Source: Nitrosomonas sp. Nm132
GTDB lineage: Bacteria; Pseudomonadota; Gammaproteobacteria; Burkholderiales; Nitrosomonadaceae
Reading direction: 5' to 3'
Length of the DNA stretch: 64,000 nucleotides
Assembly: GCF_900100485.1 (NCBI RefSeq)
Contig: NZ_FNDH01000011.1
Coordinates: 1-64,000, forward strand
Shown: in pieces, positions 46,019 to 63,881 of the stretch
How positions within the stretch are numbered: position 1 is the stretch's first letter
Layout of the letters: each line of letters begins with the position of its first letter
The notes under the pieces: model-generated
Told to the model about the DNA's origin: nothing
Databases searched by the model: none
The model's input: the letters and a program-made list of their open reading frames with translations, nothing else
Program-made: the position numbers and the translations under genes

Positions 46019-46034
46019 TGTATAGATCTATACA
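46019..46034. promoter_or_regulatory. 16-bp perfect palindrome before the riboswitch
   Basis: TGTATAGATCTATACA is a perfect palindrome directly upstream of the riboswitch core. It could be an operator for a regulator or an extra hairpin in the leader RNA; the sequence alone does not decide. Confidence 0.45.
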
Positions 46035-46039
46035 GCTGA

Positions 46040-46178
46040 TGTAATAGCAAACTAGGGTTCCGACTTCTTATATAAGGAGTGTCTGGTCCAAGAGTTTCTG
46101 GCTTCGGTAATAACGAAGCTCCACGGAGGGATAAAAGCCCGGGAGATTGTGTAATGTGTCAGCACATTACAACTCTCG
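46040..46178 (+). ncRNA. Guanidine-I (ykkC) riboswitch with expression platform
   Basis: The conserved core of the ykkC/guanidine-I class is present in order: ACTAGGGTTCCGAC (46051 onward), TCTGGTCCAAGAG, and ACGGAGGGATAAAAGCCCGG followed by GAGA. The distal hairpin arm between them is TCTGGCTTCGGTAATAACGA. Right after the core, a second hairpin (GTAATGTG-TCAG-CACATTAC, extended by flanking GAGA/TCTC bases) is the likely expression platform. Binding of guanidinium normally turns expression on. It lies upstream of the guanidine-degradation operon, which fits the ligand. Confidence 0.93.
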
Positions 46179-46212
46179 GTACTTGACCTGATGACTTAAA
46201 GGAGACTTCGTT

Positions 46213-46440
46213 ATGGACGCGCAAATCTTATATTCATTTCTTTTCTACCTTCCCCTCGGTATCACTGGAAAAGCGCTAACATTTTCCGCTTATAGGTTAT
46301 TCATACGAATCAGCGCTAATGGCTCGTCAGGAAACAATAAGCGGTGCCTGACCGATCAATTTTCCTCGTACTATCCTCATGCCTGTGAAACACTGGCAAT
46401 AAAGACTAAGCCATTTAGTGACCATCAGGTTCTCAGTTAA
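46213..46440 (+). CDS. Small ORF between riboswitch and permease
   Basis: A 75-codon frame with an excellent AAAGGAG site 8 nt before its ATG, directly after the riboswitch. The N-terminus (MDAQILYSFLFYLPLGITG) is hydrophobic, like the start of a membrane protein; the rest is polar and resembles nothing I know. It may be a leader peptide, a small membrane protein, or the truncated start of a lost transporter gene. It belongs to the riboswitch-controlled transcript. Confidence 0.45.
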   Translation: MDAQILYSFLFYLPLGITGKALTFSAYRLFIRISANGSSGNNKRCLTDQFSSYYPHACETLAIKTKPFSDHQVLS

Positions 46441-46494
46441 CAGCAAGTTTTGACTTGGGTTGAATAATCTTTCATTACATTTACGAGGTATAGC

Positions 46495-47925
46495 ATGTCA
46501 ACCGCTCAAAATCCCAAAAGCTTTTCATCTGAAATGAAATCAGCTGATCCCAGTATGCTTAACCGTAGCATGGGTATCTGGAATAGTTTTACGCTTGGCT
46601 TTGCAGTGGTTTCTCCAGTAGTTGGACTTTATGCCATTGTGGGGGTGCAAACCAATGTGACTGGTGGAGGCTGGTTCCCAGCTCTCGTGAGCTGTTTAAT
46701 CATGCAATTACTGGTTGCAACCGTCTATGCCGAATTATCTTCCCAATTTCCCATTGCTGGCGGCGCTTACAAATGGGCGCGTCAACTCGGTGGAACCATT
46801 TTAGGCCAGTATGCTGGCGCGATTTATATCAGTTCAACCATCGCTATGCTGACAACAACCGCTTACACCGGGGGAATCTGGCTTGCCATTCTATTTGATT
46901 CTCCAAGTGAAACAGGCGCTATGATGGTACTTTGGGGTGCGGCTTTTCTGCTCATTTGCATGCTGCTCAATCTTGCTCATGTGAATGTGTTTAAGTCGGT
47001 CATTGCCCTCGGTGTATATGCCGAAATCATTGGATCGTTCGGCATGGCTCTGTTACTTTTCCTGTTCTTTAGAGAACATCCCTTCTCTGAATTATTCCAG
47101 CACCTGGGTACCGGTACAGCGCCAGATGAGCTATCTGCTTTTCTCGCTGCACTTGCCATTGCCGGTTGGGCATTCATCGGATTTGATGCTTGTTCAACGA
47201 CTTCAGAGGAAACACATCAACCCACACGCATGGTGCCACGGGCAATTTTCTTCTCGTTATGCGCGGTAGGTACCGTGGTTGTTTTCAACTCTGCTGCACT
47301 GACATTGTCATTTGATCATGCTACCTTGGCAAAAACCAGTGCTACGTTTGATCCAATCACTCCTCTAATTACGACGCATATTGGAGATTGGTTCGAGAAG
47401 CCCTTTCTGGCGATTGTCGTAATCGCTTTTCTTGCTTGCGGTGCGTCCGTCGTCAAATATACCTCGCGCATCGTGTTTTCCATGGCACGTGAAGGCAATA
47501 TGCCTGTATCGCTCAGTCGCGTAACCGCTGCTAAAGCACCCCGGAATGCGATTCTTTGTACAGTATTTCTGGCAGGCCTGGGACTGTTGTTTGGACTGAA
47601 TAATGAAGCCGTCGCGACCATCATCGCCTTTGGTACAGGAGGACTCTATGCTATGTTTTCCATGACTACGGGAGTTGGTTTATATACTCGACTGACGGGT
47701 CGCTGGGATCCGGCACTCGGTGAGCTGAGATTAGGGGTATGGGGTCTGATCATCAACATTGCCGCCTTTCTCTGGTCATTATTTGAGCTGATCAACATAG
47801 CCTGGCCGCGTACCTATTTGGCTTCACCTGATGCACCCTGGTGGCAGCTCTGGGCGGTGCCACTGGTTTTGGGAAGCATTCTGGGAGTAACTACATTGAC
47901 TATTCTGATAAGGAGGAGCAAATGA
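46495..47925 (+). CDS. APC-family permease, probable guanidine transporter
   Basis: A 476-residue inner-membrane amino acid-polyamine-organocation carrier with about 12 helices. GFAVVSPVVGLYAIVGV in helix 1, FPIAGGAYKWARQLGG and GWAFIGFDACSTTSEETHQP are family motifs. It is the first main gene after the guanidine-I riboswitch and overlaps the next gene by 4 bp, so guanidinium (or a guanidino compound) is the most likely substrate; related carriers are often labelled as amino acid permeases in urea carboxylase clusters. Specificity is inferred from context only. Confidence 0.85.
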   Translation: MSTAQNPKSFSSEMKSADPSMLNRSMGIWNSFTLGFAVVSPVVGLYAIVGVQTNVTGGGWFPALVSCLIMQLLVATVYAELSSQFPIAGGAYKWARQLGGTILGQYAGAIYISSTIAMLTTTAYTGGIWLAILFDSPSETGAMMVLWGAAFLLICMLLNLAHVNVFKSVIALGVYAEIIGSFGMALLLFLFFREHPFSELFQHLGTGTAPDELSAFLAALAIAGWAFIGFDACSTTSEETHQPTRMVPRAIFFSLCAVGTVVVFNSAALTLSFDHATLAKTSATFDPITPLITTHIGDWFEKPFLAIVVIAFLACGASVVKYTSRIVFSMAREGNMPVSLSRVTAAKAPRNAILCTVFLAGLGLLFGLNNEAVATIIAFGTGGLYAMFSMTTGVGLYTRLTGRWDPALGELRLGVWGLIINIAAFLWSLFELINIAWPRTYLASPDAPWWQLWAVPLVLGSILGVTTLTILIRRSK

Positions 47926-48653
47926 ATCAAAATAACGTATTTCTGTGGGAAGAACATATCCCGGGCGGATGCCATTGGTCAGGAATTATACGCCGTGGCC
48001 TAACCTTACGCTTAGCTGATGTCGCTGGCGGTGCTAACGCTGCGGTCTTGTTTTTCAACCAGGAAGAAAAACTGGAGCGCTATAACATGGCCGATACCTT
48101 GAAGGCGCAGCATACCTTCCGTTTGACTAAAGGGCATGCCTGTTATTCCGATATGGGACGAATATTCTGCTGTATTACTGCCGATACGGTAGGTTGGCAT
48201 GATACCGCATGCGGTCTGAGCGATCGCAAACTGATCCAGCAAAAATATGGTGCCGCCCGCTACCAGGAGCATCGCAATCAAATGTATCGCAGTGGCCTGG
48301 ATGGAATGCTCATCGAACTCGGTAAATGGGGATTGGGAATGCGTGACATCGTCTCCAACATTAATTTCTTCAGCAAAGTATCCGCAAACGCTGCGGGTGA
48401 ATTAACGTTTCATCGTAACCATAGTAAAGCGGGCGACTATGTTAATCTGAGTTTTGAAATGGATACGTTGGTTATCCTTTCCGCTGCACCTCATCCGCTT
48501 GATACCAGTACAACCTATCAACCCGGCGATATCCATCTGGTAGCATTTACTACACCGGTCGCAACAGTTTCGGAATGCCAGCAGATTGCTGAGAACGTAC
48601 GGGGATTACACAATACTCATCGGTTATATCACCCCTGTGGAGGTGCATTATGA
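47922..48653 (+). CDS. DUF1989 protein, carboxyguanidine deiminase subunit (first)
   Basis: A 243-residue protein of the DUF1989 (urea carboxylase-associated) family. In riboswitch-controlled clusters the paired proteins CgdA/CgdB form a deiminase that converts carboxyguanidine to allophanate plus ammonia. The start is the ATG overlapping the permease stop, with AGGAGGAG before it; the longer frame is in the permease. Conserved parts are [20 protein letters not shown] (with Cys and His as likely metal ligands) and the C-terminal substrate region SNINFFSKV. It overlaps its partner by 4 bp. Which of A or B it is cannot be told. Confidence 0.87.
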
Positions 48654-49318
48654 ATACGTCTCTATTGATAGAAAGCAAACTCAATCCCGATCTCGCCATC
48701 ATCGATGAAATTTGTGCGGCAGGTGAGCCTTGGGTCAAGATCGTTAAACAAGGGCAAATTTTCCGCATTGTCGATCTGGAAGGCAATCAAGCTGTCGATA
48801 CGCTATTTTTTAATGCCAACCACGCATTGGAGCGCTATAGCGTAACCGATACGATACGTGCCCAGAATAAGCTGTATCTGACCACCGGCAGCAAGCTCTG
48901 CTCCAATCTGGGTAATGCCATGCTCACGATCATCGCGGATACCTGCGGGCGTCATGACACACTCGGGGGTGCCTGTGCAGCAGAAAGCAATACGGTACGT
49001 TATGCACTGGAGAAATATCCCATGCACAGTTGCCGGGATAGCTTCCTTCATGCGCTGGCTCACGAGGCTGCTTGCGAGCAGCTCGGCATGAGCAAGCGCG
49101 ATATACCGAGCAACATCAATTTCTTTATGAATGTTCCTGTCACTGCGGAAGGTAACCTGGAATTTGTCGACGGCATTTCCGCCCCCGGCAAATACGTTGA
49201 AATGCGAGCTGAAATGGATGTGCTGGTATTGATCTCGAATTGTCCGCAGCTGAACAACCCCTGTAATGCCTATAACCCGACACCGATCCGTTTACTGATC
49301 TGGGATTCTCAGCAATGA
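48650..49318 (+). CDS. DUF1989 protein, carboxyguanidine deiminase subunit (second)
   Basis: A 222-residue partner of the preceding DUF1989 protein and homologous to it: both share a YxxTDTxxAQ-like stretch ([17 protein letters not shown]), the cysteine-containing [20 protein letters not shown] and the [11 protein letters not shown] block. Here the motif continues [11 protein letters not shown], with an extra Cys absent from the first subunit (TACGLSDRK), so the two probably form a heteromer with one fully equipped metal site. It starts inside the stop of the first gene and ends 57 bp before the carboxylase gene. Confidence 0.87.
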
Positions 49319-49375
49319 CAATACCCTGCGCAATTAAATTCGGCTGATCATTTCACTTAGGAAGAGGATAACGCT

Positions 49376-52300
49376 ATGTTCGATAAAATCCTGATTGCCA
49401 ACCGCGGCGCCATTGCCTGCCGGATTATCCGTACGCTCCGCCGCATGAACGTCACAAGCGTGGCAGTTTACACGGAAGCCGACGCCCTATCGCGACATGT
49501 CACCGATGCAGACGAGGCTTACTGCATCGGCAGTGGTCTCGCAGCCGAAAGTTATCTGCGCGCAGACAAAATATTAGAGATTGCTCAGCAAACCGGTGCA
49601 CAAGCGATCCATCCCGGTTATGGCTTTCTCAGTGAAAAAGCCGATTTTGCCGAGCAATGCGCTGCGCATGGGATTTGTTTTATCGGCCCTACGCCGCAGC
49701 AAATGCGCAACTTTGGCTTGAAACATACTGCACGGGCCTTGGCGCTGGAAAATCAGGTGCCGCTCCTGCCAGGAACCGACTTACTGGAAAATATTGAAGC
49801 GGCTTGCCATCAAGCCAAACATATTGGTTACCCCGTCATGCTGAAAAGCACCGCCGGAGGTGGTGGCATAGGCATGCGCCTCTGCTGGAATCAAGATGAG
49901 CTGATCGGCGCTTATGAATCTGTCAAAACGCTCGCACAAAATAATTTCAAGGATGCCGGTCTCTTTCTTGAAAAATATGTCGACCGGGCCCGCCATATTG
50001 AGGTACAGATTTTTGGTGATGGTAAAGGCCAGGTTGTCGCATTAGGTGAGCGTGATTGTTCCATGCAACGGCGTAACCAGAAAGTCATCGAGGAAACGCC
50101 TGCTCCCAACCTTGCACCGCATCTGCGCCAGGCACTGCTTGAGACGGCGGTACGCCTTGGCAAAGCCGTCAACTATCAATCCGCTGGTACGGTCGAATAT
50201 ATTTTCGATGCCGCGAATGGTCAGTTTTATTTTCTCGAAGTCAATACCCGCCTGCAAGTGGAACATGGCGTGACTGAGGAAGTCACCGGCATAGATCTGG
50301 TGGAATGGATGGTGCGTCAGGCAGCTGGGGATCTCCCTCCCCTCGATTCTTTCACGATCAAACCCAGCGGTGCCTCCATCCAGGTTCGGGTGTATGCGGA
50401 AAATCCTGCAAAAGACTTCCAACCTTCCAGCGGCACACTGACTGCGGCAGAATTTCCTGCGGCAGCCCGTATTGAAACTTGGGTCGAGCGCGGCATCGAA
50501 GTTTCAGCATTTTATGATCCCATGCTGGCTAAAATCATCGTGCATGCGCCTGATCGAGAAAAAGCCATCGCAACCTTACTCGCCGCACTGGATAACACGT
50601 CATTGCATGGGATTGAAACCAACCTGGCTTACCTCAAACAAATTCTGCAAAGCACTGCGTTCTGTAGTGGGCAACCGAACACGCAATTCCTCAATGGGTT
50701 TCATTATCTGGCGGACAGTATCGATATCCTGAATGCCGGGGTGCAAACCATGATACAGGATTATCCGGGACGAATTGGTTACTGGAACGTAGGTGTTCCC
50801 CCTTCTGGGCCGATGGATAGCTTGGCTTTTCGTCTTGCCAACCGGCTGGTAAACAATACCGAAGATAGCGCTGGGCTGGAAATCACCGTGGCAGGCCCGA
50901 CGCTGCGTTTTAATTGCGATAGCATCATTGCCATCTGCGGCGCGCCCATCGATATATTGCTGGACAGTGAACCGTTGTCCCAGTGGCAATCTCATTTCGT
51001 CAAAGCGGGTGCGCTCTTGCAGTTTGGTAAAGTTAAACAATCCGGCAACCGGGTTTACTTAGCCGTGCACGGTGGTTTTCAGGTACCTGATTATCTTGGC
51101 AGTAAATCTACCTTTACGCTAGGTCAGTTCGGCGGGCATGCAGGACGTGTACTGCGTGCCGGGGATGTGCTGCATATTCAACCCATTCAGCCTTTCCAGC
51201 ACCCAGCACCTCAATATCTACCCCAGCAGTCGATTCCTCATTACACGGATCGCTGGGAAATCGCAGTATTGTATGGACCCCATGGCGCGCCTGATTTCTT
51301 TACCGCAGCTGATATCGAACAATTTTTTGCCGCTGAGTGGAAAGTCCATCATAACTCCAGCCGAACGGGGGTACGCTTGATTGGCCCTAAACCCCAGTGG
51401 GCGCGTCCCGATGGCGGTGAGGCCGGTTTGCATCCCTCCAATATCCACGATAATGCTTATGCAGTTGGCGCAGTCGATTTTACCGGGGATATGCCGATCA
51501 TCCTTGGCCCCGATGGCCCTAGTCTAGGTGGCTTCGTCTGTCCGGCCACCATTGCTCATGCGGAGTTGTGGAAAATTGGACAACTCAAACCCGGTGATAG
51601 CATTCGCTTTCATCCGATATCGATGGAAGATGCGCTTAAACTGGAAGAACAACAGAATCAATTGATCCAGCATCTGGGGGCTGATGGAAGCTCGTCAACC
51701 TATTCTCAACCTGCAAAACTAGAAAATCCTATTTTGCATTGCATTCCTGAGAGCAAAGAGCGTGTGCAGGTGACTTACCGTCAATCCGGTGATAAATACC
51801 TATTAATCGAGTATGGAGCGCCCGTACTCGATCTGAATTTGCGCTTTCGTGCTCATGCACTGATGACATGGCTGCAGCAGCGCATTAACGGCGGCGAGCT
51901 TGCCGGTATTCTGGATCTGACCCCTGGCATTCGTTCCCTGCAGATTCATTTTGATTCACGCCGGCTGGCGCGCGATACTTTGCTGGATCTTCTAATCGCA
52001 AGTGAAAGCAAGCTGCCAGCGATCGATGACATGGAAGTCCCGTCCCGCATCATCCATCTGCCTTTATCCTGGGATGATGCCGCCACGCGATTAGCCATCG
52101 AAAAATACATGCAATCGGTACGCAGCGACGCCCCCTGGTGCCCAAGCAATATCGAATTTATCCGCCGCATTAACGGGCTGGAAAGCATTGAGGAGGTTCA
52201 GCATATTGTATTTGCAGCCAGTTATCTGGTCATGGGATTGGGCGATGTCTATCTGGGCGCGCCCGTGGCAACCCCCCTCGATCCGCGTCATCGCCTGGTC

Positions 52301-53002
52301 ACCACCAAATACAATCCGGCACGCACCTGGACACCCGAAAATGCCGTCGGGATCGGTGGCGCCTATCTCTGCGTGTATGGCATGGAAGGTCCGGGAGGTT
52401 ATCAATTTGTTGGCCGTACCCTACAAATGTGGAATCGTTACCGCCAGACAGCCGATTTCAAGGATGGCCAACCGTGGTTATTGCGTTTCTTCGATCAAAT
52501 CCGTTTCTATCCGGTCAGTGAAAGCGAGCTGCTCAAACTGCGCAAAGATTTCATTGCCGGGCGCTTCAAGCTGCGTACGGAAGAGACTGTTCTAAGCCTG
52601 AAACAATACCATACCTTCCTGCAACAACATGCTGCCAGCATTGATGTATTCAAAGCCAGACAACAGGCTGCCTTCGAAGCCGAGCGGCAACGCTGGCAAG
52701 CCAATAATCTGACCCATTATGTCAGTGAAGATACACTGGATGAAGCAGACACACAGTGTGAACTGGACTTGCCAGAAGGCGCACAAGCTGTCAGTTCCCA
52801 AGTAACGGGTACGGTTTGGAAGTTACTCGTCACGGAAGGCGACCATGTGGAAGCAGGCAAGCCTGTCATCATGATCGAATCCATGAAAATGGAATTCTCG
52901 GTAGATTCCTCTGTCACCGGCACAGTGCGGCAATTATTCTGTAAACAAGGCGGATATGTATCTGCCGGGCAGGTGCTGCTCATCATCCAGGAACAGGAGT
53001 AA
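49376..53002 (+). CDS. Biotin-dependent guanidine carboxylase (urea carboxylase family)
   Basis: A 1208-residue single-chain carboxylase. Residues 1-450 are biotin carboxylase ([23 protein letters not shown]-grasp [31 protein letters not shown]). About 460-1000 are the KipA/KipI-like carboxyltransferase region ([40 protein letters not shown]). The C-terminal biotinyl domain has [10 protein letters not shown] with the biotin Lys near residue 1171. The family includes urea carboxylases and guanidine carboxylases; the riboswitch and the two DUF1989 genes point to guanidine. GAAGAGG precedes the ATG. The allophanate hydrolase gene follows after 9 bp. Confidence 0.92.
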
Positions 53003-53011
53003 GGAGTAACT

Positions 53012-54829
53012 ATGCAAAAACTTCTCCCGCTGGGTGACGTTTCATCTTTGCTGCAACGCTATGCGCGCGGTAAACTCTCCCCGACCCAAATGGTCGAAGC
53101 CATTCATGCCGAGATTAAAAATGACCCAGATCATGTTTGGATTGCCACACTTTCACTGGAGTCATTACAAGGTTACGCTCGCAAGGTGGAAGCACAAGGG
53201 ATGGCATCATTGCCGCTGTATGGCGTACCCTTCGCCATCAAGGACAATATTGATCTGGCAGACATACCAACCACGGCTGCTTGCCCAGCTTTTGCCTACA
53301 TGCCATCATGCAACGCAACTGTCGTGCAGAGACTGATCGATGCCGGTGCGATCCCCATCGGCAAAACCAATCTTGATCAGTTCGCCACCGGACTAAATGG
53401 CACACGGTCTCCCTATGGGGCTTGCCGCAATGCATTCAATCCCCTTTATATTTCCGGCGGCTCCAGTTCAGGTTCGGCCGTTGCTGTCGCCAAGGGGCAG
53501 GTATGTTTCAGCCTCGGCACCGATACTGCAGGTTCCGGCAGAGTTCCCGCCGCTTTTAATAATCTGATCGGATATAAGCCCACGAAAGGTTGGCTTTCGG
53601 CGCATGGCATGGTACCGGCTTGCCGCTCTCTCGATACAGTATCCATCTTCGCATATACTGCTGCGGATGCGGCGCGCGTCCTGACAATTTGTGCTGCTTA
53701 TGACGCAGCGGATATCTATTCAAGGAAAAGAGAAGAACACGGCCTCGATTTTGGCGCTGCCCCACATTTCCGCTTTGGTATCCCGCGTAAACGGCAACTG
53801 CAATTTTTTGGTAATCGTGAAAGTGAACGCTTGTTTAACGATGCAATAACCCGCATGCAAGTGCTGGGTGGAGAAGCGACCGAGATAGATTTTGAGCCCT
53901 TTCTCGAAGCTGCCCGCCTCCTTTACGAAGGGCCCTGGGTAGCCGAGCGTTATGCAGCGATTCAATCATTCTTCGAGTCGCACAGTGAACAGGTCATTGC
54001 ACCGGTACGTGAAATCATCGCGACTGCGAAACGGCACTCTGCCGCGGACGCCTTCAATGGGTGCTATCAATTACGCCAAATCAAACAACAGACAGACCAG
54101 ATTTGGGCAGATGTTGATTGCCTGCTGACGCCCACTGCCGGGACGATCTATCCCATTCAAGCCATACAGCAAGATCCCATACGCCTCAATGCCAACTTGG
54201 GCTACTACACCAATTTCATGAATCTGCTCGACTATGCTGCGGTTGCCGTTCCTGCTGGCTTCCAGAATGATGGGTTGCCTTTTGGCATCACGCTGGTAAC
54301 ACCGGCTCACCAGGACGAACCGTTGCTGCATCTTGCTCATCGGCTGCAGCAAGCTTATTCGCTCCCGCTGGGTGCGACAGGCATTGCACTACCTCAGAAC
54401 ATTCCCTTTCCTGCCGCATCCCGGTCTGGTCAGGTACAAATAGCCGTCTGTGGCGCACATTTATCTGGCTTGCCATTAAATCGACAATTGACCAGCCGCC
54501 AGGGGCGATTAGTGGCACGCACCACTACCTCAGCAGACTATAGACTCTATGCTTTGCCAGGAGAACCACCGCAACGCCCTGGGCTAATTCGAGTCAATCC
54601 AAATGAGCAAGGTGTTGCGATCGAGGTGGAGGTCTGGGAACTGCCGATGCACGAATTGGGCAGTTTTGTGGCCAATATTCCAGCACCGCTAGGAATCGGC
54701 ACCCTAACCCTGGCAAATGGTGAAACAGTGCAAGGTTTTCTCTGCGAGCATTACGCTATCGAAAATGCAAAAGATATCAGTTGTTTTGGCGGGTGGCGCG
54801 GCTACCTCCAACAACTAGCCAATCCCTAA
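53012..54829 (+). CDS. atzF: Allophanate hydrolase
   Basis: Splits allophanate into two ammonia and two CO2, the last step of the guanidine or urea carboxylase route. The 605 residues contain an amidase-signature domain with the Ser-cisSer-Lys triad: Lys in VPFAIKDNIDLAD, cis-Ser in GGSSSGSAVAVAKG and nucleophile Ser in GTDTAGSGRVPAAF. The C-terminal 160 residues form the second domain seen in AtzF/DUR1-type enzymes (GAHLSGLPLNRQL). It is separate from the carboxylase here, unlike fungal urea amidolyase. A miniature-element remnant begins immediately at its stop codon. Confidence 0.93.
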   Translation: MQKLLPLGDVSSLLQRYARGKLSPTQMVEAIHAEIKNDPDHVWIATLSLESLQGYARKVEAQGMASLPLYGVPFAIKDNIDLADIPTTAACPAFAYMPSCNATVVQRLIDAGAIPIGKTNLDQFATGLNGTRSPYGACRNAFNPLYISGGSSSGSAVAVAKGQVCFSLGTDTAGSGRVPAAFNNLIGYKPTKGWLSAHGMVPACRSLDTVSIFAYTAADAARVLTICAAYDAADIYSRKREEHGLDFGAAPHFRFGIPRKRQLQFFGNRESERLFNDAITRMQVLGGEATEIDFEPFLEAARLLYEGPWVAERYAAIQSFFESHSEQVIAPVREIIATAKRHSAADAFNGCYQLRQIKQQTDQIWADVDCLLTPTAGTIYPIQAIQQDPIRLNANLGYYTNFMNLLDYAAVAVPAGFQNDGLPFGITLVTPAHQDEPLLHLAHRLQQAYSLPLGATGIALPQNIPFPAASRSGQVQIAVCGAHLSGLPLNRQLTSRQGRLVARTTTSADYRLYALPGEPPQRPGLIRVNPNEQGVAIEVEVWELPMHELGSFVANIPAPLGIGTLTLANGETVQGFLCEHYAIENAKDISCFGGWRGYLQQLANP

Positions 54830-56348: not shown

Positions 56349-58997
56349 ATGAATTTACTTGATGCCACTACCCGCGTAGCACTAAGCGCATATTTGCACG
56401 ATCTGGGCAAGCTGGCGGAACGCGCTAACATCGATCATGAGGGGCGACTTGATGCGCACAAGAACCTGTACTGCCCTTGGCAATATAATGGCGGCTATCA
56501 CAGCCATATCCATGCCGCCTACACCGGCATCGCCTGGGATGAGCTGGAAGCCACCGGTCATTTTCCTGATCTCAGGGGAAACTGCCCTCCCTTTGTATCG
56601 ATCGAAACAGATGCCAACTTGCCAGACTCGGTTGTCAATGCCGCGGCTGCACATCATAAACCGGATACCTTCCTGCAATGGGTGGTAGCGACCGCCGACC
56701 GCGTCGCCTCCGGTTTCGAGCGTGATGAATTCGATAGCCAATATAACAGCGCACGAGAACGTGAGAACCATTATCGTGCTCGTTTGCTGACCCTGTTCGA
56801 GCAAATCGACAAAAGAGAAATTGAAGAAGGAAAGCTTAATTGGCGTTATCCGCTGGAACTGCTCTCGCCCCAATTTCTGTTTCCGCGCACTGATTGCACC
56901 CCGTCCGACGATGCCACTGCCCGTGCACAATATCATCAATTATGGGAAGCACTTCTAGACGATTTAAAACGCATTCCCCGCTCACACCGCGATAATCTGC
57001 CATTATGGCTCGATCATTTCGATACGCTGTGGTTGGCCATCTGCCACGCGATACCGGCCGCTACCGCCTTTGGCGTTAAACCGGAGGTATCGCTTTACGA
57101 TCACTCCAAGGCAACCGCCGCGCTGGCTGCTGCGCTCTGGCGCTGGCATCATGAGCTGGATAAGCAAACTGTCGCCGATCTGAAAGATGGCTGGGAGAAA
57201 GAAAAATTCCTGCTCATCCAGGGTGATTTCTTTGGTATCCAGAATTTCATCTTCGCTGAAGGCGGCGAAACCAACAAACATGCGCACAAGCTGTTGCGCG
57301 GACGGTCTTTCCAGGTCGCCTTGCTGGCCGAATGCGCCGCGCTCACGCTGCTGGATATGCTGGCACTACCCCCTACCAGCCAGATCATCAATGCTGCTGG
57401 TAAATTTCTCATTGTTGCGCCCAATACTGCAAAAACGCGTGAAGCGGTTGAGAATGTACAGCGCACGTTCAATCACTGGTGCTTGGAGCATACCTATGGC
57501 GAAATCGGCATCGGCCTTGCCGTCACGCCTGCCAGTTGCAACGATTTTGCCCAGAAGCGTTTCAGCGATCTGGTCAAGCGTCTGTTCGAAGCGCTGGATA
57601 TTGCCAAGCATCAGCGCTTCAATCTTTGTGGTGCCAATAGTCCTGCGGTATTCAGCGATTTTCTGGATCGTTTCAACAACGAGCTTGGGGTCTGTGAGAT
57701 CAATGGACGTTACCCTGCTGAATCGAAAGCACCGGATTATGCCATTAGCCATCTGACCAGAGATCAAATTCGCATCGGCGAATCACTGACCAAATGCGCT
57801 AGAGTGCTAATCAGCCGCGATGCTGACTCATTGCAGCAAAAATCGCTGGCGTTGGATTACTTTGGCTGGCGCATCGCGTTTGTCCATGATGCTGAAGAGT
57901 CCGGCAACTACGGGCAACTGGCAAAAGAACGCAAGCTGATTCGCTGCTGGGATTTCAGCCTGCCTGAAAAAAATGGCAAAGTATTTCACGGGCTCGCGCG
58001 ACGGTTCGTCAATACCTATGTGCCACGCTTTAATCAAACTGATGTGGATACTCAAGACAAGTATGAGTGTTTACAGAAAGAGGATGAATTTGGTTTGGAT
58101 TCCATCAAAACCCTGCATCACCTGGCCTGCGAAGACCGGCAACTCAAAGAAAGTGACCGCTGGCGCGGTGAAATCGCACTGGTCACGCTCAAGGGTGATG
58201 TCGACAATCTTGGCACACTGTTCCAGAAGGGGTTGGAGAAGCCAACTTTCGCCAAATGGGCATCGCTCTCCCGCCAGATCAATTTATTTTTTGCACTATG
58301 GCTGCCGTGGTTCTGTGAACATGGCAAGGACAGTAAAGATATCGCTCGCTACCGCAATACCTATACCGTGTTTGCCGGTGGGGATGATTTCTTCCTGATC
58401 GGCCCGTGGCGCTCAACCATCGCGCTGGCTGGGGAAATGCAAAAGCACTTTGAACGCTATACCACCAACCCAGGTATAACCTTTTCCGCGGGCCTGAGCA
58501 TGACCCAGCCCAAAGTGCCGGCACGGCATCTGGCACGATCGACTGAGGCCGCGCTGGAACGATCCAAAGCATACCAGGATAAAGCAGATAAGCCCAAGAA
58601 TGCCGCCACCCTCTGGAACCAGACCGTGAGCTGGCAAAACTGGCATGCGCTGCTGACTGAACGGGCTGATAAATTGGAAGCGCTGCTGGCGGAAGCGGAG
58701 TCGCATGGCGCTAAACTTTCCACCGGTTATCTCTATGACCTGCTGCAACTGGCAGACAAAGCAGAGCGGGCCAGACTTGGCAGAAATCCAGAGGATAGTC
58801 TGTGGCGCGCACAACTCGTATACCGCACCACCCGGTTCATCGGAGACCGGATGAAATCGAATGGCGACGCCCATACCAACAACCGGCGCAGACAGTTACT
58901 GGAAGCGATCAATCAGGAATTTACCAAAGCACTCGACCACCATCACGGCGCTTACCGCCTGCCGCTATCCATCTTGCTCTATGGCAGGCGCGAGTGA
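56349..58997 (+). CDS. cas10: Type III-A CRISPR-associated protein Cas10/Csm1
   Basis: The 882-residue large subunit of the Csm complex. Target RNA binding turns on its HD-domain DNase and its Palm-domain cyclic oligoadenylate synthase. The HD motif is in SAYLHDLGKLAERA (residues 13-25), with NAAAAHHKPDTF following. The Palm domain has TLKGDVDNLGTLF and the GGDD catalytic site in VFAGGDDFFLIGPW (near residue 677), so both activities look intact. The C-terminal helical domain ends in LPLSILLYGRRE. GGAAGC precedes the ATG. First gene of the cas operon. Confidence 0.94.
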   Translation: MNLLDATTRVALSAYLHDLGKLAERANIDHEGRLDAHKNLYCPWQYNGGYHSHIHAAYTGIAWDELEATGHFPDLRGNCPPFVSIETDANLPDSVVNAAAAHHKPDTFLQWVVATADRVASGFERDEFDSQYNSARERENHYRARLLTLFEQIDKREIEEGKLNWRYPLELLSPQFLFPRTDCTPSDDATARAQYHQLWEALLDDLKRIPRSHRDNLPLWLDHFDTLWLAICHAIPAATAFGVKPEVSLYDHSKATAALAAALWRWHHELDKQTVADLKDGWEKEKFLLIQGDFFGIQNFIFAEGGETNKHAHKLLRGRSFQVALLAECAALTLLDMLALPPTSQIINAAGKFLIVAPNTAKTREAVENVQRTFNHWCLEHTYGEIGIGLAVTPASCNDFAQKRFSDLVKRLFEALDIAKHQRFNLCGANSPAVFSDFLDRFNNELGVCEINGRYPAESKAPDYAISHLTRDQIRIGESLTKCARVLISRDADSLQQKSLALDYFGWRIAFVHDAEESGNYGQLAKERKLIRCWDFSLPEKNGKVFHGLARRFVNTYVPRFNQTDVDTQDKYECLQKEDEFGLDSIKTLHHLACEDRQLKESDRWRGEIALVTLKGDVDNLGTLFQKGLEKPTFAKWASLSRQINLFFALWLPWFCEHGKDSKDIARYRNTYTVFAGGDDFFLIGPWRSTIALAGEMQKHFERYTTNPGITFSAGLSMTQPKVPARHLARSTEAALERSKAYQDKADKPKNAATLWNQTVSWQNWHALLTERADKLEALLAEAESHGAKLSTGYLYDLLQLADKAERARLGRNPEDSLWRAQLVYRTTRFIGDRMKSNGDAHTNNRRRQLLEAINQEFTKALDHHHGAYRLPLSILLYGRRE

Positions 58998-59070
58998 CGG
59001 CAAGCTTGCCGCATAATGGGAATTTTGCATAACACAATAGAATAATCAATCAAATAAAGGAAAACAACTT

Positions 59071-59523
59071 ATGTCACAACTCTTCCCTCCGAAACATCGG
59101 CGAGAAAAACAACCACATGAAGAAGCCAACTCTACTATCCGGGAGGCAGCTTCCAAACTTGCATTTTCCAGTGATCCTGTCCCTGGTGATTTGTTCGACT
59201 CAACTGCCAGAACGATTGCTGAAGAGCTGGCTAATGCCAAGGAAAAATTCAATAGACCCACCCAAATTCGGCGCTTCTATGACGAATTGGTCAACTGGCA
59301 GCAGCGCATCAAGGATGATGAAGCAGCATTCAAGAAATATGAAGCCTTCATCCGCATGATGAATGCCAAGGTTGCTTATGCGAAGGGGCGAGAACTCGTC
59401 GATGCCAATTTCGAGCACTGGTTCAAGGAAGGCATCGAGGCGACCACCAGCGCCAGAGCGCTCAAACATTTCCAGTTTCACTTCGAGGCGGTACTCGGTT
59501 TTCTAAAAGGCTTACGCGGCTAA
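59071..59523 (+). CDS. csm2: Type III-A small subunit Csm2
   Basis: A 150-residue helical protein, the small subunit of the Csm filament. The characteristic part is TQIRRFYDELVNWQQRI and FIRMMNAKVAYAKGREL, with FKEGIE and a C-terminal helix FQFHFEAVLGFLKGL. The first 45 residues are polar and probably disordered. AAAGGAAAA lies before the ATG. It follows cas10 by 73 bp and precedes csm3 by 24 bp. Confidence 0.92.
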   Translation: MSQLFPPKHRREKQPHEEANSTIREAASKLAFSSDPVPGDLFDSTARTIAEELANAKEKFNRPTQIRRFYDELVNWQQRIKDDEAAFKKYEAFIRMMNAKVAYAKGRELVDANFEHWFKEGIEATTSARALKHFQFHFEAVLGFLKGLRG

Positions 59524-59547
59524 ACGTCGTTAAAAAGGACAGAAAAA

Positions 59548-60273
59548 ATGCAATTGACCCAAATCAAGCAAATCACAGGTACGCTGGCACTGAAGACCGG
59601 TCTGCACATTGGCGGCGGCGATAGCGAAATGCGTATCGGTGGCATCGATAATCCGATCATCAAGGATCCAGTTTCCGGACTGCCCTACATTCCCGGTTCA
59701 TCCCTCAAAGGTAAGATACGCAGTCTGCTCGAATGGCGGTTTGGCCTGGTTACCGCTACGGATGGCAAGCCATTCTCATTTCAGCATTTAAAAGCAATCG
59801 ATTCACCGCAAGCGCGCGACCTGCTCAAGCTGTTCGGCGGCGCGCCGGGAAGCGAAACTGGCGCAATTGCGAACGAAATCGGCCCTACCCGGCTGGCGTT
59901 CTGGGATTGCCCATTGAATATGCAATGGAAGCAAGGCGAGTTGGGTGAGCACACTTCAGCAACCGAAGCCAAAACAGAAAATAGCATCGATCGTATCAAA
60001 GGTGTTGCGGCCAATGGTGCAATCCGCCAAACCGAACGCGTGGTCGCAGGCGCACAATTTAACTTCCGTCTGAGCCTCAAGGTGCATGATGAGGAAAATC
60101 TGCTGGATAGGGTACTGACCGGCCTCAAGCTACTGGAATGCGATAGTCTGGGCGGTTCCGGCTCACGAGGCTATGGCAAGATCAAGTTCCTCGATTTGCA
60201 AGTGGATGGCGAACCGCTGCAAGCCAATTTCGAGCAGATTCAGCCCTTTTCCAATGCGACCAGGGTTGCCTGA
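59548..60273 (+). CDS. csm3: Type III-A RAMP protein Csm3
   Basis: The 241-residue backbone subunit that binds crRNA and cuts target RNA every 6 nt. LKTGLHIGGGDSEMRIGGID, then LPYIPGSSLKGKIRSLLEWR, and the C-terminal GGSGSRGYGKIKFLDL glycine-rich loop are the Csm3 signatures. The catalytic Asp should be the one in the GIDNPIIKDP stretch. It follows an AAAAGGAC site. csm4 starts 1 bp after its stop. Confidence 0.95.
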   Translation: MQLTQIKQITGTLALKTGLHIGGGDSEMRIGGIDNPIIKDPVSGLPYIPGSSLKGKIRSLLEWRFGLVTATDGKPFSFQHLKAIDSPQARDLLKLFGGAPGSETGAIANEIGPTRLAFWDCPLNMQWKQGELGEHTSATEAKTENSIDRIKGVAANGAIRQTERVVAGAQFNFRLSLKVHDEENLLDRVLTGLKLLECDSLGGSGSRGYGKIKFLDLQVDGEPLQANFEQIQPFSNATRVA

Positions 60274-60274
60274 C

Positions 60275-61225
60275 ATGGCCCATACCCTTTACCGTGCGAG
60301 CTTGCGGTTGCACAGCGCCTTTGGCACCCTGCTGGTGGGAGACACGCTGTTTGGTCAGTGTTGCTGGGCGGTACGTGAACAGTGGGGTGAGTCTGAATTG
60401 CAGCGATTGCTCAATGGTTATACCACCGGCAACCCCTGGCTGGTTGTCTCCGACGGATTTCCGGCAGGATTTTTGCCCAAACCTACCTTGCCCCAGTCAT
60501 TCGAATCGGCATCAAGTGCTGAAGAACGCAAAGCGATCAAGCATCAGCGCTGGATACCGCTTGAGGTGGTGGGCAAACCGCTCAAGGGCATGCTGGCAGA
60601 AGCGAAATCAGATGACGAGGCCTACACAAAGAAACCTGTGGAAGCTGTTCAGCCGCACAACACCTTGAACCGGTTGACCGGCACTACCGGTACGGGTCAA
60701 TTTGCCCCCTATACACAAAGGCAAATCTTTTATGCGCACAATCAAGCCATTGATCTTTACCTGGCGCTGGATGAATCCCGTCTGCCGATCGAAAAAATGC
60801 GAATCCTGCTTGAGGCCATCGGCATGCAGGGCTATGGACGGGATGCCAGTATCGGTTTAGGTAAATTCGGCGTCAACAGCATCGAGTCACATCATTTTGC
60901 TCCGGCCATTTCACCAGAAAAAACCAATGCTTTCTGGACACTCGCCCCCTGCGCGCCGCAGGGACTGGGTTTCGACGCTGACAAAAGCTACTGGCGCGTG
61001 ATCACCCGTTTTGGCCGGCATGGTAGCCACCAGGCGCTCGCCGCCAACCCTTTCAAGAATCCAGTGCTGCTGACTGCCACCGGCGCCATTTTTGCAGCAG
61101 ACAAGCCCGCTGATACGCTGTTCATCGGCCAGGGCCTGGGCGGTAACGGACAACTTTCAAAAAGCGAGCCAGCCACTGTCCAGCAAGGCTATGCGCCAGT
61201 GGTGAGCTTAAATAGGGATGACTAA
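60275..61225 (+). CDS. csm4: Type III-A RAMP protein Csm4
   Basis: A 316-residue RAMP that caps the 5' end of the crRNA and binds Cas10. The start chosen is the ATG after the csm3 stop (MAHTLYRASLRLHSAFGTLL); the longer frame lies inside csm3. TLFGQCCWAVREQWGE and GYGRDASIGLGKFGV, the glycine-rich loop, identify it. The sequence after residue 230 (PCAPQGLGFDADKSYWRVIT) is the usual Csm4 C-terminus. It overlaps csm5 by 1 bp. Confidence 0.93.
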   Translation: MAHTLYRASLRLHSAFGTLLVGDTLFGQCCWAVREQWGESELQRLLNGYTTGNPWLVVSDGFPAGFLPKPTLPQSFESASSAEERKAIKHQRWIPLEVVGKPLKGMLAEAKSDDEAYTKKPVEAVQPHNTLNRLTGTTGTGQFAPYTQRQIFYAHNQAIDLYLALDESRLPIEKMRILLEAIGMQGYGRDASIGLGKFGVNSIESHHFAPAISPEKTNAFWTLAPCAPQGLGFDADKSYWRVITRFGRHGSHQALAANPFKNPVLLTATGAIFAADKPADTLFIGQGLGGNGQLSKSEPATVQQGYAPVVSLNRDD

Positions 61226-62832
61226 TGACTATGGATAAAATCGATTGCCGTTCGATCACCTTAACCACCCTCTCGCCGATTCATATCGGCAGTGATGAGG
61301 ATTATGTCCCGACCAATTTCGTGATCAAGGACAACCTGTTGCACTATCTGGACATGGCCGTGCTGGCCGATGTGCTGGATGATAACGAGCGCCGCGAGCT
61401 CAATGCGAGGCAGACCATCGGTGCGATTCAACAGTTTTTCAAATCCAGGCGAGATCGCTTTGCGCCGCTCGCCAGCCATATTATCGGCGTAGCAAGTGAT
61501 ATTGCGCAGGAATATGAGGTCAAGGCTGGCCAGCCAGTGCAACGAGGCGTTGGCGGTGAGCTCACCTACAATATGTTTCCAATTACCCGCACGGCGTACC
61601 GGACTATTGATTTTTCACCTTACCTGCCAGGCAGCTCGCTCAAAGGCAGTATCCGCACTGCCTGGCTAGATGCCCTCAACAGCGGAAAGCCGCTGCAACA
61701 AATCGCAGGAAAAGGTAAGGAAACCAATCAGGCACTTCAGCAGAGGCTATTGGGCTACACTGCTGGCAAATTCGAGAATGACTCATTGCGCCATCTGCAT
61801 TTAGCGGATGCCCATCATGACGATGAACCCATGCCCACCCATATTCTCTACGCGGTCAGCAAGAAAAAGCGGCCAGGCGAACGTAACGCATCCGAACTAA
61901 AGGTTTTTCTCGAAACCATTCCCGGATTGCTGAGCGATGCCTTCACTGGAGAAATTCGTATCAAAGATGAAAACAGTCTGACATGGCAGCAGCTTTGTGA
62001 TGCCTGCAATGCTTTCTACTGGCCACAACTGGAAGCCGAGCTTGAGCATGCGCATCTGGCGGACATGCTTGATGCGACATGGCAGCAAACCATGCAAGAT
62101 TTACTCAATAATGAGTTCGATGAGTTAGGCAAAAACCATCAGGGCTTTCTGCTGCGTGTCGGCAAGCACTCTGGTGCAGAATCAGTAACACTCAATGGTG
62201 TGCGCGATATTAAGATTCTGGGTAAAAAAGGCTCCCCTCCCACCTATCATAGAGAAACCACCGAAAAACGCTTTGCCAGCGAAAGCAGAGAAGCTGCCAG
62301 CGGTCTGCTGCCATTCGGCTGGCTATGGGTCGAGTCCTGCCAGGATGAATACCAGTATCTCTCCATCGCCGTGCGCGACAAACTCCGGCCATATACAGAT
62401 ACTCTACGCGATGCACAGCGTGAACGCCTTGAACAGGTCAAGCAGGCACGCGCAACCTGGCAAACCGCCAAACAGGCAGCCGAACAGAAACGTATTGAGG
62501 AAGAAGAAGCCACTCGCAGGGAAGCGGAAGCTGCACAGGCAAAAGCAGCCGAATTGGCCAGCATGAGCGAAAACATGCGGCAAATCGCGCGGCTGCGTGA
62601 CGAAATCGATAAGCGCCTGGCAATGGGCCGGAAAATTAATGTATCCGATCAGTTCTATGGTGGAACGATGAAAAAACTGGCGCAACAAGCGCTGGAAAGT
62701 CTTGATTGGAGCACAGAAGAAAAAAGCGCACTGGCCAATATGCTCGAAGACCGGGCTGGCAAACTCATGAATCTCGATGCCAAAGATCTGCGCAAACAGC
62801 TCAAACTGACTGCCTTGCGCGGACAGGCATAG
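61225..62832 (+). CDS. csm5: Type III-A RAMP protein Csm5 with a long coiled-coil tail
   Basis: Caps the 3' end of the crRNA and helps recruit trimming nucleases. Residues 1-400 are the RAMP part: LTTLSPIHIGSDEDYVPTNF, FSPYLPGSSLKGSIRTAWLD, and the C-terminal SGLLPFGWLWVES. The protein then continues for about 134 residues from LEQVKQARATWQTAKQAAEQ through a run rich in Glu, Ala and Arg, which should form a coiled coil, and a small helical end (LNALDAKD-like KDLRKQLKLTALRGQA). With 535 residues it is well over the usual size of about 350-400. cas6 starts 15 bp downstream. Confidence 0.9.
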   Translation: MTMDKIDCRSITLTTLSPIHIGSDEDYVPTNFVIKDNLLHYLDMAVLADVLDDNERRELNARQTIGAIQQFFKSRRDRFAPLASHIIGVASDIAQEYEVKAGQPVQRGVGGELTYNMFPITRTAYRTIDFSPYLPGSSLKGSIRTAWLDALNSGKPLQQIAGKGKETNQALQQRLLGYTAGKFENDSLRHLHLADAHHDDEPMPTHILYAVSKKKRPGERNASELKVFLETIPGLLSDAFTGEIRIKDENSLTWQQLCDACNAFYWPQLEAELEHAHLADMLDATWQQTMQDLLNNEFDELGKNHQGFLLRVGKHSGAESVTLNGVRDIKILGKKGSPPTYHRETTEKRFASESREAASGLLPFGWLWVESCQDEYQYLSIAVRDKLRPYTDTLRDAQRERLEQVKQARATWQTAKQAAEQKRIEEEEATRREAEAAQAKAAELASMSENMRQIARLRDEIDKRLAMGRKINVSDQFYGGTMKKLAQQALESLDWSTEEKSALANMLEDRAGKLMNLDAKDLRKQLKLTALRGQA

Positions 62833-62846
62833 AGGTAGATCTCATC

Positions 62847-63806
62847 ATGATCACTACCTACCCCCTTGCCCGCTATCGCTTCGATTTCGAGGTCACTACC
62901 CCATTACGGCTGCCGGAATATGCCGGCTCGACGCTGCGCGGCGTATTTGGGCGCGCATTACGGCAACTGGCCTGCGTCACGCGGGCAAAAGACTGTCACG
63001 GCTGCCTGCTGCAGCGCAACTGTCCCTACCCCGCCGTTTTTGAGCCACCCAAACCAGAGATGGCCTCGCTGAAAAACATTGCCACTGCCCCCGTGCCCTA
63101 TGTCATCGAGCCGCCGGCCTGGGGAATCAAGGATTATGCACCGGGCGAAACCCTTTCTTTTGGTTTCATACTGATCGGCAACGCGCAGCAGTATTTACCG
63201 TTATGCATCATGTCATGGCAGCGTGCTTTTGCGCGTGGTGTCGGCGCAGGTGACGGCACGGCGGAACTGCTCGGTGTAAGCGTTATCAATGAGCATACTG
63301 GTGGTCAAGAGGCCGCCCGATTGATTCACCAACCGGGTCAGAGCCTGGCCGAACATCCGCGGCATGTAACTCTGCGCATAGATACGCTACCGGAGCACAT
63401 CACCTTGCAGTTCGAGACGCCGCTCAGATTGCAGCACGAAGGCCACGCCCTGCCTCCCGCCAAAGTCAGTGCACGCGCCCTGCTCATGGCGCTGGTCCGC
63501 CGGGCGAGCTTGCTGGCCGAGATCCATGACGGCAAACCGCTCTATACTGCGGGTAAATTTTCCAGAATGACGGAGATTGCGAATCAGATTGAAAGCAAAC
63601 ATAATCTGACATGGCGTGACTGGACACGGCATTCATCGCGCCAGCAGCGTACCATGCAACTGGGCGGCTGCATCGGCAACTGGCAACTGCGCGGTAATCT
63701 TGCGCCATTCCATGATGCACTGCGCCTGGGATCATGGCTGCATGTCGGCAAGGAAACCAGCTTCGGGCTAGGAAAATATCGTATTCTGATGGAACACGGA
63801 ACATAA
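62847..63806 (+). CDS. cas6: CRISPR-associated endoribonuclease Cas6
   Basis: A 319-residue RAMP nuclease that cuts the pre-crRNA within each repeat. The ATG giving MITTYPLARYRFDFEV is used; the longer frame is in csm5. STLRGVFGRALRQLACVTRA, a CHGCLLQRNCPYP cysteine group, and the C-terminal glycine-rich loop LHVGKETSFGLGKYRIL match the Cas6 family with the C-terminal DUF2276-like domain. The CRISPR array starts 75 bp after its stop on the same strand. Confidence 0.92.
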   Translation: MITTYPLARYRFDFEVTTPLRLPEYAGSTLRGVFGRALRQLACVTRAKDCHGCLLQRNCPYPAVFEPPKPEMASLKNIATAPVPYVIEPPAWGIKDYAPGETLSFGFILIGNAQQYLPLCIMSWQRAFARGVGAGDGTAELLGVSVINEHTGGQEAARLIHQPGQSLAEHPRHVTLRIDTLPEHITLQFETPLRLQHEGHALPPAKVSARALLMALVRRASLLAEIHDGKPLYTAGKFSRMTEIANQIESKHNLTWRDWTRHSSRQQRTMQLGGCIGNWQLRGNLAPFHDALRLGSWLHVGKETSFGLGKYRILMEHGT

Positions 63807-63881
63807 CTATGACGCACCTGAAAAATCTTGTGAATGCCCCTGATAATCATTTGATCGGAAAGGGAAAAATGACAGTAATGA

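What the first reader, a model, noticed from the sequence alone, without database searches (positions are those of the whole stretch)
46019..54829. Complete riboswitch-controlled guanidine degradation operon
A guanidine-I riboswitch, an APC permease, two DUF1989 deiminase proteins, a 1208-residue biotin carboxylase and allophanate hydrolase form one tight transcript (three 4-bp overlaps). This is the carboxylase route from guanidine to ammonia and CO2, commonly annotated as urea carboxylase. If the host is a Nitrosomonas-type ammonia oxidiser, guanidine would be an energy source giving three ammonia per molecule, not only a nitrogen source.
Basis: partly seen in the sequence, partly recalled or inferred. 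Interest (0 to 1): 0.85.

Follow-up and report, generated by a model that had tools for sequence, protein, structure and literature searches.

The report
Guanidine-eating operon behind relay riboswitch
An ammonia-oxidising bacterium carries a complete, already described set of genes for turning guanidine into ammonia; what looks new is that its guanidine-sensing RNA appears to open a small extra reading frame placed before the first gene, rather than that gene itself.

Summary
The operon is real: guanidine-I aptamer, APC permease, two DUF1989 proteins, a 1208-aa carboxylase, allophanate hydrolase. It has two 4-bp overlaps, not three. The carboxylase has Asp at both positions used in print to call guanidine carboxylases. 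The host has amoCAB and Nitrosomonas relatives; no urease was found. The pathway in betaproteobacterial ammonia oxidisers was published in 2024 (Palatinszky et al.: guanidine genes in 135 of 145 genomes). That paper speaks against 'energy source': none of five such strains used guanidine alone; three used some, only with ammonium.

Not in the papers I found: the riboswitch looks like a translational ON switch whose anti-Shine-Dalgarno helix shows compensatory changes across relatives. In 34 of 79 loci the gated start is the permease start. In the window's clade, the Nitrosospira group and others the same start opens a separate short ORF (75 aa here) before the permease. That frame is open to the permease in 14 of 16 hand-picked representatives (4.4 expected); its stop overlaps the permease start by 10 nt in 14 of 34 leaders, though not in the window. 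A relay through this ORF is likely but untested. Metabolic part: already known. Leader: new variant of a known kind.

The parts
46041..46147 (+). guanidine-I (ykkC) riboswitch aptamer
   Evidence: RF00442, 90.2 bits, gathering 63
46110..46122 (+). anti-Shine-Dalgarno strand inside the aptamer (ATAACGAAGCTCC)
   Evidence: pairs with 46201-46214 in the minimum-energy fold; compensatory changes among 73 riboswitches
46139..46179 (+). hairpin after the aptamer, without a following U-run
   Evidence: fold; no terminator-like site found, 0.4 expected
46201..46215 (+). riboswitch-gated Shine-Dalgarno sequence and start codon (GGAG...ATG)
46213..46440 (+). upstream ORF, 75 aa, inferred to be a translated leader
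   Evidence: no Pfam family up to E = 1
46495..47925 (+). APC-superfamily permease, putative guanidine importer
   Evidence: PF13520 120.8 bits; TIGR03428 162 bits, below its cut-off
47922..48653 (+). UAAP1 / DUF1989, carboxyguanidine deiminase subunit
   Evidence: TIGR03425 334.5 bits, cut-off 206
48650..49318 (+). UAAP2 / DUF1989, carboxyguanidine deiminase subunit
   Evidence: TIGR03424 346.4 bits, cut-off 285
49376..53002 (+). guanidine carboxylase (annotated class: urea carboxylase), 1208 aa
   Evidence: TIGR02712 1970 bits; Asp701 and Asp957
53012..54829 (+). allophanate hydrolase, 605 aa
   Evidence: TIGR02713 823.6 bits, cut-off 511; Amidase plus AH_C domains

Best explanation
This is the guanidine carboxylase operon of a Nitrosomonas in which no urease was found. 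Guanidine enters by the APC permease (inferred), is carboxylated with ATP by the biotin enzyme, deiminated by the two DUF1989 subunits to allophanate and one ammonia, and split by allophanate hydrolase to two more ammonia and CO2; the ammonia can feed nitrogen assimilation or ammonia monooxygenase. Regulation: without guanidine, aptamer bases 46110-46122 pair with the Shine-Dalgarno sequence and start codon at 46201-46214; guanidine holds those bases inside the aptamer hairpin and frees the start. In this clade that start belongs to a 75-codon upstream ORF, not to the permease. Inferred: translation of this ORF lets expression pass on to the permease and the rest, either by keeping Rho off the untranslated leader or by delivering ribosomes to the permease start. 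Supported by sequence comparison: gene content, guanidine-type residues, no urease match, the sequestering helix, an ORF longer than expected. Inferred: ligand response, transport, the relay and its kind. My probability is about 0.95 for the pathway, 0.85 for the translational ON switch, 0.6 for a functional relay through the ORF.
For: Gene and RNA families. Guanidine-type residues Asp701/Asp957, with Asp at both positions in 85 of 85 aligned rows of fetched relatives (the window is counted twice). amoCAB; no urease with two models. Helix: SD pairing probability at least 0.99 in the predicted fold. Among 56 distinct anti-SD/SD combinations (73 switches), the three positions before the start codon give 159 of 168 standard pairs against a shuffle mean of 146 (sd 2, 0 of 2000 reach); slid registers 5/56, 56/112, 40/168, 55/168; the pairs to the start codon itself are 49 and 52 of 56; double changes A-U to G-C in 19 rows and C-G to U-A in 4 rows of 73. 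The gated start is the permease start in 34 and opens a separate ORF in 37 of 79 loci; in 8 the rule found no start. ORF: frame open to the permease in 14 of 16 representatives against 4.4 (sd 1.6) expected; in 15 of 17 Nitrosospira-group leaders against 4 and 3 in the other two frames; stop overlaps the permease start by exactly 10 nt in 14 of 34 leaders (all three counts include G110, which has no start codon). Window clade: 62-89 codons after the start in 7 of 7 genomes, P 0.012-0.078 each. Literature.
Against: Nothing here was measured. In the window's clade the ORF stops 30-95 nt before the permease (54 nt here), so direct coupling is not obvious there; its indels are often not multiples of three (4 of 12 in the seven pairs of that clade, against 10 of 10 in the nine other pairs) and dN/dS reaches 0.91 (0.28-1.08 over 12 pairs). 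The permease has its own possible Shine-Dalgarno (GAGG). G110 has ATA where the start should be; G092, G114 and G056 have early stops; in the permease leaders of G021 and G036 no gated start was found. A rule that also admits TTG and ATA picks other starts in some leaders, for instance G117 and G119. Predicted opening of the permease start when the ORF is covered is inconsistent between genomes. Related genomes are not independent, and uORF and permease starts were picked by hand. The C-over-G stretch that a Rho site might show is modest (97.7th percentile of all 78-nt windows). No Pfam family was found for the ORF.
Confidence: 0.8

Rival explanations
1. The upstream ORF has no function: the SD-like GGAG and the AUG are kept only because they are the partner strand of a regulatory helix, and the riboswitch acts through RNA structure or termination.
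For: GGAG pairs with aptamer bases CTCC that hardly vary, so it could be conserved for pairing alone; ORF sequence is poorly conserved and frame-breaking indels occur in the window's clade; G110 lacks the start codon.
Against: An ATG or GTG within 3-9 nt of the SD-like sequence is found in 71 of 79 loci; the frame is open to the permease more often than shuffles give (14 of 16 against 4.4); stop-start overlap recurs in the Nitrosospira and N. europaea groups; no terminator-like site follows the aptamer (where 0.4 was expected by chance).
Confidence: 0.3
2. The enzyme is a true urea carboxylase that stands in for the missing urease, and the operon is for urea.
For: No urease was found in the genome and the best family model is named urea carboxylase.
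Against: Asp, not Asn, at K. lactis position 1330; guanidine riboswitch and carboxyguanidine deiminase genes in the operon; literature passages. Some urea activity is not excluded.
Confidence: 0.04
3. Guanidine is a sole energy source for this organism.
For: Complete gene set to three ammonia plus amoCAB.
Against: Five AOB strains with this gene set did not use guanidine alone; three used part of it only with ammonium (Palatinszky et al., legend read). The route costs ATP.
Confidence: 0.1

Closest known systems
Guanidine carboxylase pathway of betaproteobacterial ammonia oxidisers (Palatinszky et al. 2024, PMC11410670; passages read)
   Same: Guanidine carboxylase, carboxyguanidine deiminase, allophanate hydrolase, APC permease nearby in most, guanidine-I riboswitch shown for Nitrosospira multiformis; guanidine degradation genes in 135 of 145 betaproteobacterial AOB genomes.
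   Different: The passages read do not describe the translational helix or the upstream ORF. No urease was found here, as reported there for N. communis Nm2.
Guanidine carboxylase / carboxyguanidine deiminase / allophanate hydrolase route of other bacteria (review PMC12186494 and PMC11410670, passages)
   Same: Same three enzymes.
   Different: In Pseudomonas syringae and three enterobacteria an ABC importer, and in those enterobacteria a guanidine-II riboswitch before the carboxylase; here an APC permease and one guanidine-I switch.
M. tuberculosis ppe2 B12 riboswitch with translated uORF (PMC11260477; abstract and two sections read)
   Same: The switch controls the start of a short upstream ORF; downstream gene reached mainly by termination-reinitiation.
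   Different: OFF switch, other ligand; coupling shown by reporters there, only inferred here; there stop and start overlap (AUGA), in the window they are 54 nt apart.
M. tuberculosis pe20 Mbox with uORF and Rho-dependent termination (PMC12810186, abstract)
   Same: Translational platform acting on a small upstream ORF, with Rho as the second step.
   Different: A magnesium-sensing switch; Rho shown there, not tested here.
S. meliloti metA SAM-II riboswitch controlling translation at a distance (PMC9373788, abstract)
   Same: The SD controlled by the switch acts on a start further downstream.
   Different: SAM sequesters the SD (OFF); the second start is in frame, with no separate ORF described in the abstract.

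Membership tests
Guanidine-I riboswitch | Score above the curated RF00442 threshold over the whole aptamer | tested here: met
   90.2 bits, positions 1-107 of 107
Guanidine-I riboswitch | Binds guanidinium | not testable with these tools
   needs in-line probing or calorimetry
Guanidine carboxylase | Full-length urea-carboxylase-family enzyme (BC, CT, BCCP) | tested here: met
   TIGR02712 1970 bits over 1-1201; domains
Guanidine carboxylase | Asp at K. lactis 1330 and Asp at 1584 | tested here: met
   Asp701 and Asp957; criterion taken
Guanidine carboxylase | Prefers guanidine to urea | not testable with these tools
   needs enzyme kinetics
Urea carboxylase (strict) | Asn at K. lactis 1330 | tested here: not met
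   Asp701
Carboxyguanidine deiminase (two DUF1989 subunits) | Both UAAP1 and UAAP2 models above cut-off | tested here: met
   334.5 and 346.4 bits
Allophanate hydrolase | TIGR02713 above cut-off with AH_C domain | tested here: met
   823.6 bits; AH_C 171.5 bits
Ammonia-oxidising host | amoCAB | tested here: met
   amoC, amoA, amoB side by side on G000:C99
Ammonia-oxidising host | Hydroxylamine dehydrogenase | not tested
   no search was made
Riboswitch with translational expression platform | Helix sequestering the Shine-Dalgarno, supported by compensatory changes | tested here: met
   independent events were not counted on a tree
Riboswitch-gated translated uORF (ppe2 type) | uORF is translated and needed for downstream expression | not testable with these tools
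   only comparative evidence
Riboswitch-gated translated uORF (ppe2 type) | Stop of the uORF overlaps the start of the next gene | tested here: not met
   54 nt apart in the window; in relatives a 10-nt overlap in 14 of 34 leaders

The most novel reading that the evidence does not exclude
In many ammonia oxidisers the guanidine-I riboswitch does not act on a structural gene but on a fast-evolving upstream ORF whose translation relays the signal to the permease: by stop-start coupling in the Nitrosospira and N. europaea groups, and probably by keeping Rho off or by loose reinitiation in the N. communis clade to which the window belongs. This would be a guanidine ON-switch counterpart of the few uORF-gating riboswitches found in print.
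Probability: 0.55. Interest if true: 0.55.

Novelty: new variant of a known kind. Interest (0 to 1): 0.4.

Why it matters
It places one more ammonia oxidiser among those that could draw ammonia from guanidine, here apparently without urease. If the relay is real, it adds an ON switch to the small set of riboswitches that work through an upstream ORF, in a family where a direct and a relayed form of the same switch can be compared (34 and 37 of 79 loci). Whether it bears on the published weak use of guanidine by AOB is open.

Tried and rejected
Considered and rejected: urea carboxylase (Asp at K. lactis 1330); a terminator-type platform in the window (no terminator-like site; by eye, the Gallionellaceae relatives L156/L157 have a CCCGGG stem followed by a T-rich stretch); a rule that every carboxylase genome has either allophanate hydrolase or urease (18 of 79 good genomes have neither above cut-off; of these G011 has the hydrolase in two pieces, and G002 and G116 have short urease fragments); RNA opening of the permease start by uORF translation as a general mechanism (inconsistent).

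Coverage and dropped rows: one search lists 112 riboswitch places in 101 of 125 genomes; 82 of these were on stretches fetched (count). One search used the 79 of 82 with a permease or carboxylase as first gene (L031, L033 and L034 left out). Searches used 73 of 82: the 71 with a gated start, plus L031 and L034. One search aligned 71 of these 73 (L037 and L043 left out). One search used 34 of the 38 permease leaders that have a separate ORF or no start by the rule; left out were G001, G021, G036 and G085. In the N. europaea group the gated start of the permease leader lies nearer the aptamer, about 31 nt, in 5 of 7; in G021 and G036 none was found. part A used 16 hand-picked representatives of the 27 leaders outside the window's clade. 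uORF pairs compared: 12, 16. The genome table uses G000-G119 only, and leaves out G049, whose carboxylase is broken (90% complete, so not among the 79). Loci L097-L176 served for names and outgroups, and L097 (Nm33) also for the uORF pairs. Protein structure prediction was not run.
Full report
WHAT IS THERE. The window holds one guanidine-I riboswitch at 46041-46147 (90.2 bits, gathering score 63), the only match in the genome, followed on the same strand by an APC-type permease (46495-47925), UAAP1 (47922-48653) and UAAP2 (48650-49318), both DUF1989, a 1208-residue biotin enzyme (49376-53002) and allophanate hydrolase (53012-54829). Every enzyme passes its curated family cut-off (UAAP1 334.5, UAAP2 346.4, carboxylase 1970, hydrolase 823.6 bits). 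The permease matches AA_permease_2 but stays below the cut-off of the named urea-carboxylase permease model. Terminator-like sites inside the operon are no more frequent than in shuffles (12 on both strands against 8.7, sd 3.4).

GUANIDINE OR UREA. In the comparison with the solved K. lactis enzyme the window residue Asp701 lies at Asn1330, and Asp957 at Asp1584. Palatinszky et al. 2024 (PMC11410670, passages read) used Asp at both positions to call guanidine carboxylases. In an alignment of the carboxylases fetched from relatives, 85 of 85 rows have Asp at both (the window is counted twice and 12 rows are shorter proteins). With the riboswitch and both deiminase subunits this makes guanidine the likely substrate. 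Kinetics cannot be tested here.

THE HOST. amoC, amoA and amoB stand side by side on another contig; hydroxylamine dehydrogenase was not searched. The nearest named carboxylases listed are those of Nitrosomonas sp. Nm33 (91%) and then several Nitrosomonas at 89%, among them an N. communis assembly. No urease alpha subunit is found with two models (the assembly is given as 100% complete, 135 contigs). So in this organism the last two nitrogens of guanidine would reach ammonia through the allophanate hydrolase, as far as the searches show.

WHAT WAS KNOWN. Palatinszky et al. report guanidine degradation genes in 135 of 145 betaproteobacterial AOB genomes, exclusively of the carboxylase route, mostly with an APC permease in the same region, and show a guanidine-I-controlled arrangement for Nitrosospira multiformis. 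They tested five AOB strains: none used guanidine as sole substrate; three used part of it with ammonium, one of them N. communis Nm2, which lacks urease. The operon is therefore not new, and 'energy source' is at best co-substrate use.

THE SWITCH. Window bases 46110-46122, part of an aptamer hairpin, can pair with 46201-46214, which holds a Shine-Dalgarno sequence and a start codon; in the predicted ligand-free fold the SD is paired with probability of at least 0.99. I collected 73 such switches from the family, 56 of them distinct. At the three positions just before the start codon 159 of 168 pairs are standard; dealing the partners out anew gives 146 (sd 2; 0 of 2000 reach), and sliding the strands gives 5/56, 56/112, 40/168 and 55/168. 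The two pairs that involve the start codon hold in 49 and 52 of 56, the four GGAG pairs in 54 to 56 of 56. Double changes are A-U to G-C in 19 rows and C-G to U-A in 4 rows of 73. The middle of the helix was not counted, because its register varies by one base. No terminator-like site follows the aptamer (0.4 expected by chance). This supports a translational ON switch. The shuffle control ignores kinship, and I did not count independent events on a tree.

WHAT THE SWITCH OPENS. In 34 of 79 loci the gated start is the start of the permease itself. In 37 of 79 it opens a separate short ORF (30 before a permease, 7 before a carboxylase in the N. europaea group), and in 8 my rule found no gated start: seven permease leaders of the N. 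europaea group, in five of which a start lies nearer the aptamer, and G110 with ATA for ATG. In the window the ORF runs from 46213 to 46440, 75 codons, and the permease begins 54 nt later. In the Nitrosospira group the gated frame is open up to the permease in 15 of 17 leaders, the other two frames in 4 and 3. Over 16 hand-picked representatives outside the window's clade 14 are open, against 4.4 (sd 1.6) in dinucleotide shuffles. In 14 of 34 leaders the stop overlaps the permease start by exactly 10 nt (11 Nitrosospira group, 3 N. europaea group), the arrangement expected for stop-start coupling. G110, which has no start codon, is counted in the 15 of 17, the 14 of 16 and the 14 of 34. In the window's clade the ORF has 62 to 89 codons after the start in 7 of 7 genomes, longer than shuffles with P 0.012 to 0.078 each, not independent. 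dN/dS over 12 pairs is 0.28 to 1.08. Indels: 10 of 10 are multiples of three in the nine pairs outside this clade, only 4 of 12 in the seven pairs within it. The ORF matches no Pfam family up to E = 1. So the case for a functional ORF is good for the family and weaker for the window's own clade. Starts were chosen by hand as ATG or GTG; a rule that also admits TTG and ATA picks others in some leaders.

HOW IT MAY WORK. Guanidine frees the start; ribosomes translate the upstream ORF; that allows the permease and the rest to be expressed. Where stop and start overlap, termination and reinitiation is the simplest route. In the window, 54 nt apart, protection from Rho or loose reinitiation are the candidates; a C-over-G stretch at 46217-46294 is at the 97.7th percentile of all 78-nt windows, which is suggestive only. 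Structure predictions for the permease start were inconsistent.

COMPARISON. The kind is known: an M. tuberculosis B12 switch controls a uORF with termination-reinitiation (PMC11260477, abstract and two sections), an Mbox controls a uORF with Rho (PMC12810186, abstract), and a SAM-II switch acts at a distance (PMC9373788, abstract). My searches of the held library for guanidine riboswitches with leader peptides, coupling or uORFs (16 of 16 listed, 20 of 21, 14 of 14, 20 of 244) and for Nitrosospira with riboswitch and guanidine (9 of 9) listed none that describes this by title or start of abstract; most subscription papers are not held.

FAMILY PATTERN. Of 79 carboxylase-bearing genomes at least 95% complete and at most 5% contaminated, 39 lack allophanate hydrolase above cut-off; 21 of those 39 have urease, 18 have neither above cut-off (from; three of the 18 have pieces of one or the other). 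Eleven genomes carry a second carboxylase without the biotin carboxylase domain (a twelfth, G109, is cut by a contig end); it keeps both Asp and the biotinylation motif, is set apart from the full carboxylases by one branch with SH-aLRT 100 in a quick, unrooted tree, and in all eleven genomes the hydrolase is missing above cut-off.

VERDICT. Pathway: already known, here in a member without detected urease. Leader: a new variant of a known kind, with a clear test.

Noticed in passing
L017:11161-13521, L029:6837-9158, L028:11961-14282 and 8 further loci: A carboxylase paralogue of about 780 aa with carboxyltransferase and biotin carrier domains but no biotin carboxylase domain, in the same genome as a full carboxylase and, in 10 of 11, behind permease, UAAP1 and UAAP2 (the 11th is cut by a contig end); N. 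europaea group and some Nitrosospira, all without allophanate hydrolase above cut-off. A transcarboxylase using allophanate as donor is a speculation worth a test.
   Followed up: partly
family Nitrosomonadaceae, 79 good genomes: 39 of 79 carboxylase genomes lack allophanate hydrolase above cut-off, 18 of them also urease, so many AOB would release only part of guanidine's nitrogen by known steps.
   Followed up: partly
L029:15439-16350 and L028:2437-3333: A biuret-hydrolase-like isochorismatase (NF050097, below its cut-off) directly follows the guanidine carboxylase in these two Nitrosospira-group genomes that lack allophanate hydrolase.
   Followed up: partly
L028:7793-11761 and L029:9155-11502: Genes that look like biotin synthesis genes (radical SAM/BATS and methyltransferase in both; aminotransferase and alpha/beta hydrolase in L028) lie between the two biotin carboxylase genes (the link to biotin synthesis is my inference).
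   Followed up: no
L034:2598-2703: In G052 a guanidine-I riboswitch stands directly before an allophanate hydrolase gene, with none of the other operon genes on the 10-kb stretch fetched, supporting its part in the guanidine route.
   Followed up: no
L156, L157: Sideroxydans and Gallionella relatives have a guanidine-I switch upstream and a guanidine-II switch directly before the carboxylase.
   Followed up: no
window 56349-63987: A type III-A CRISPR locus (Cas10/Csm1, Csm3, Csm4, Csm5, Cas6) and two 37-nt repeats 70 nt apart lie downstream of the operon.
   Followed up: partly
L040 (G011) 1656-2959: The allophanate hydrolase of this assembly is split into two frames, either a real disruption or an assembly error.
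   Followed up: no
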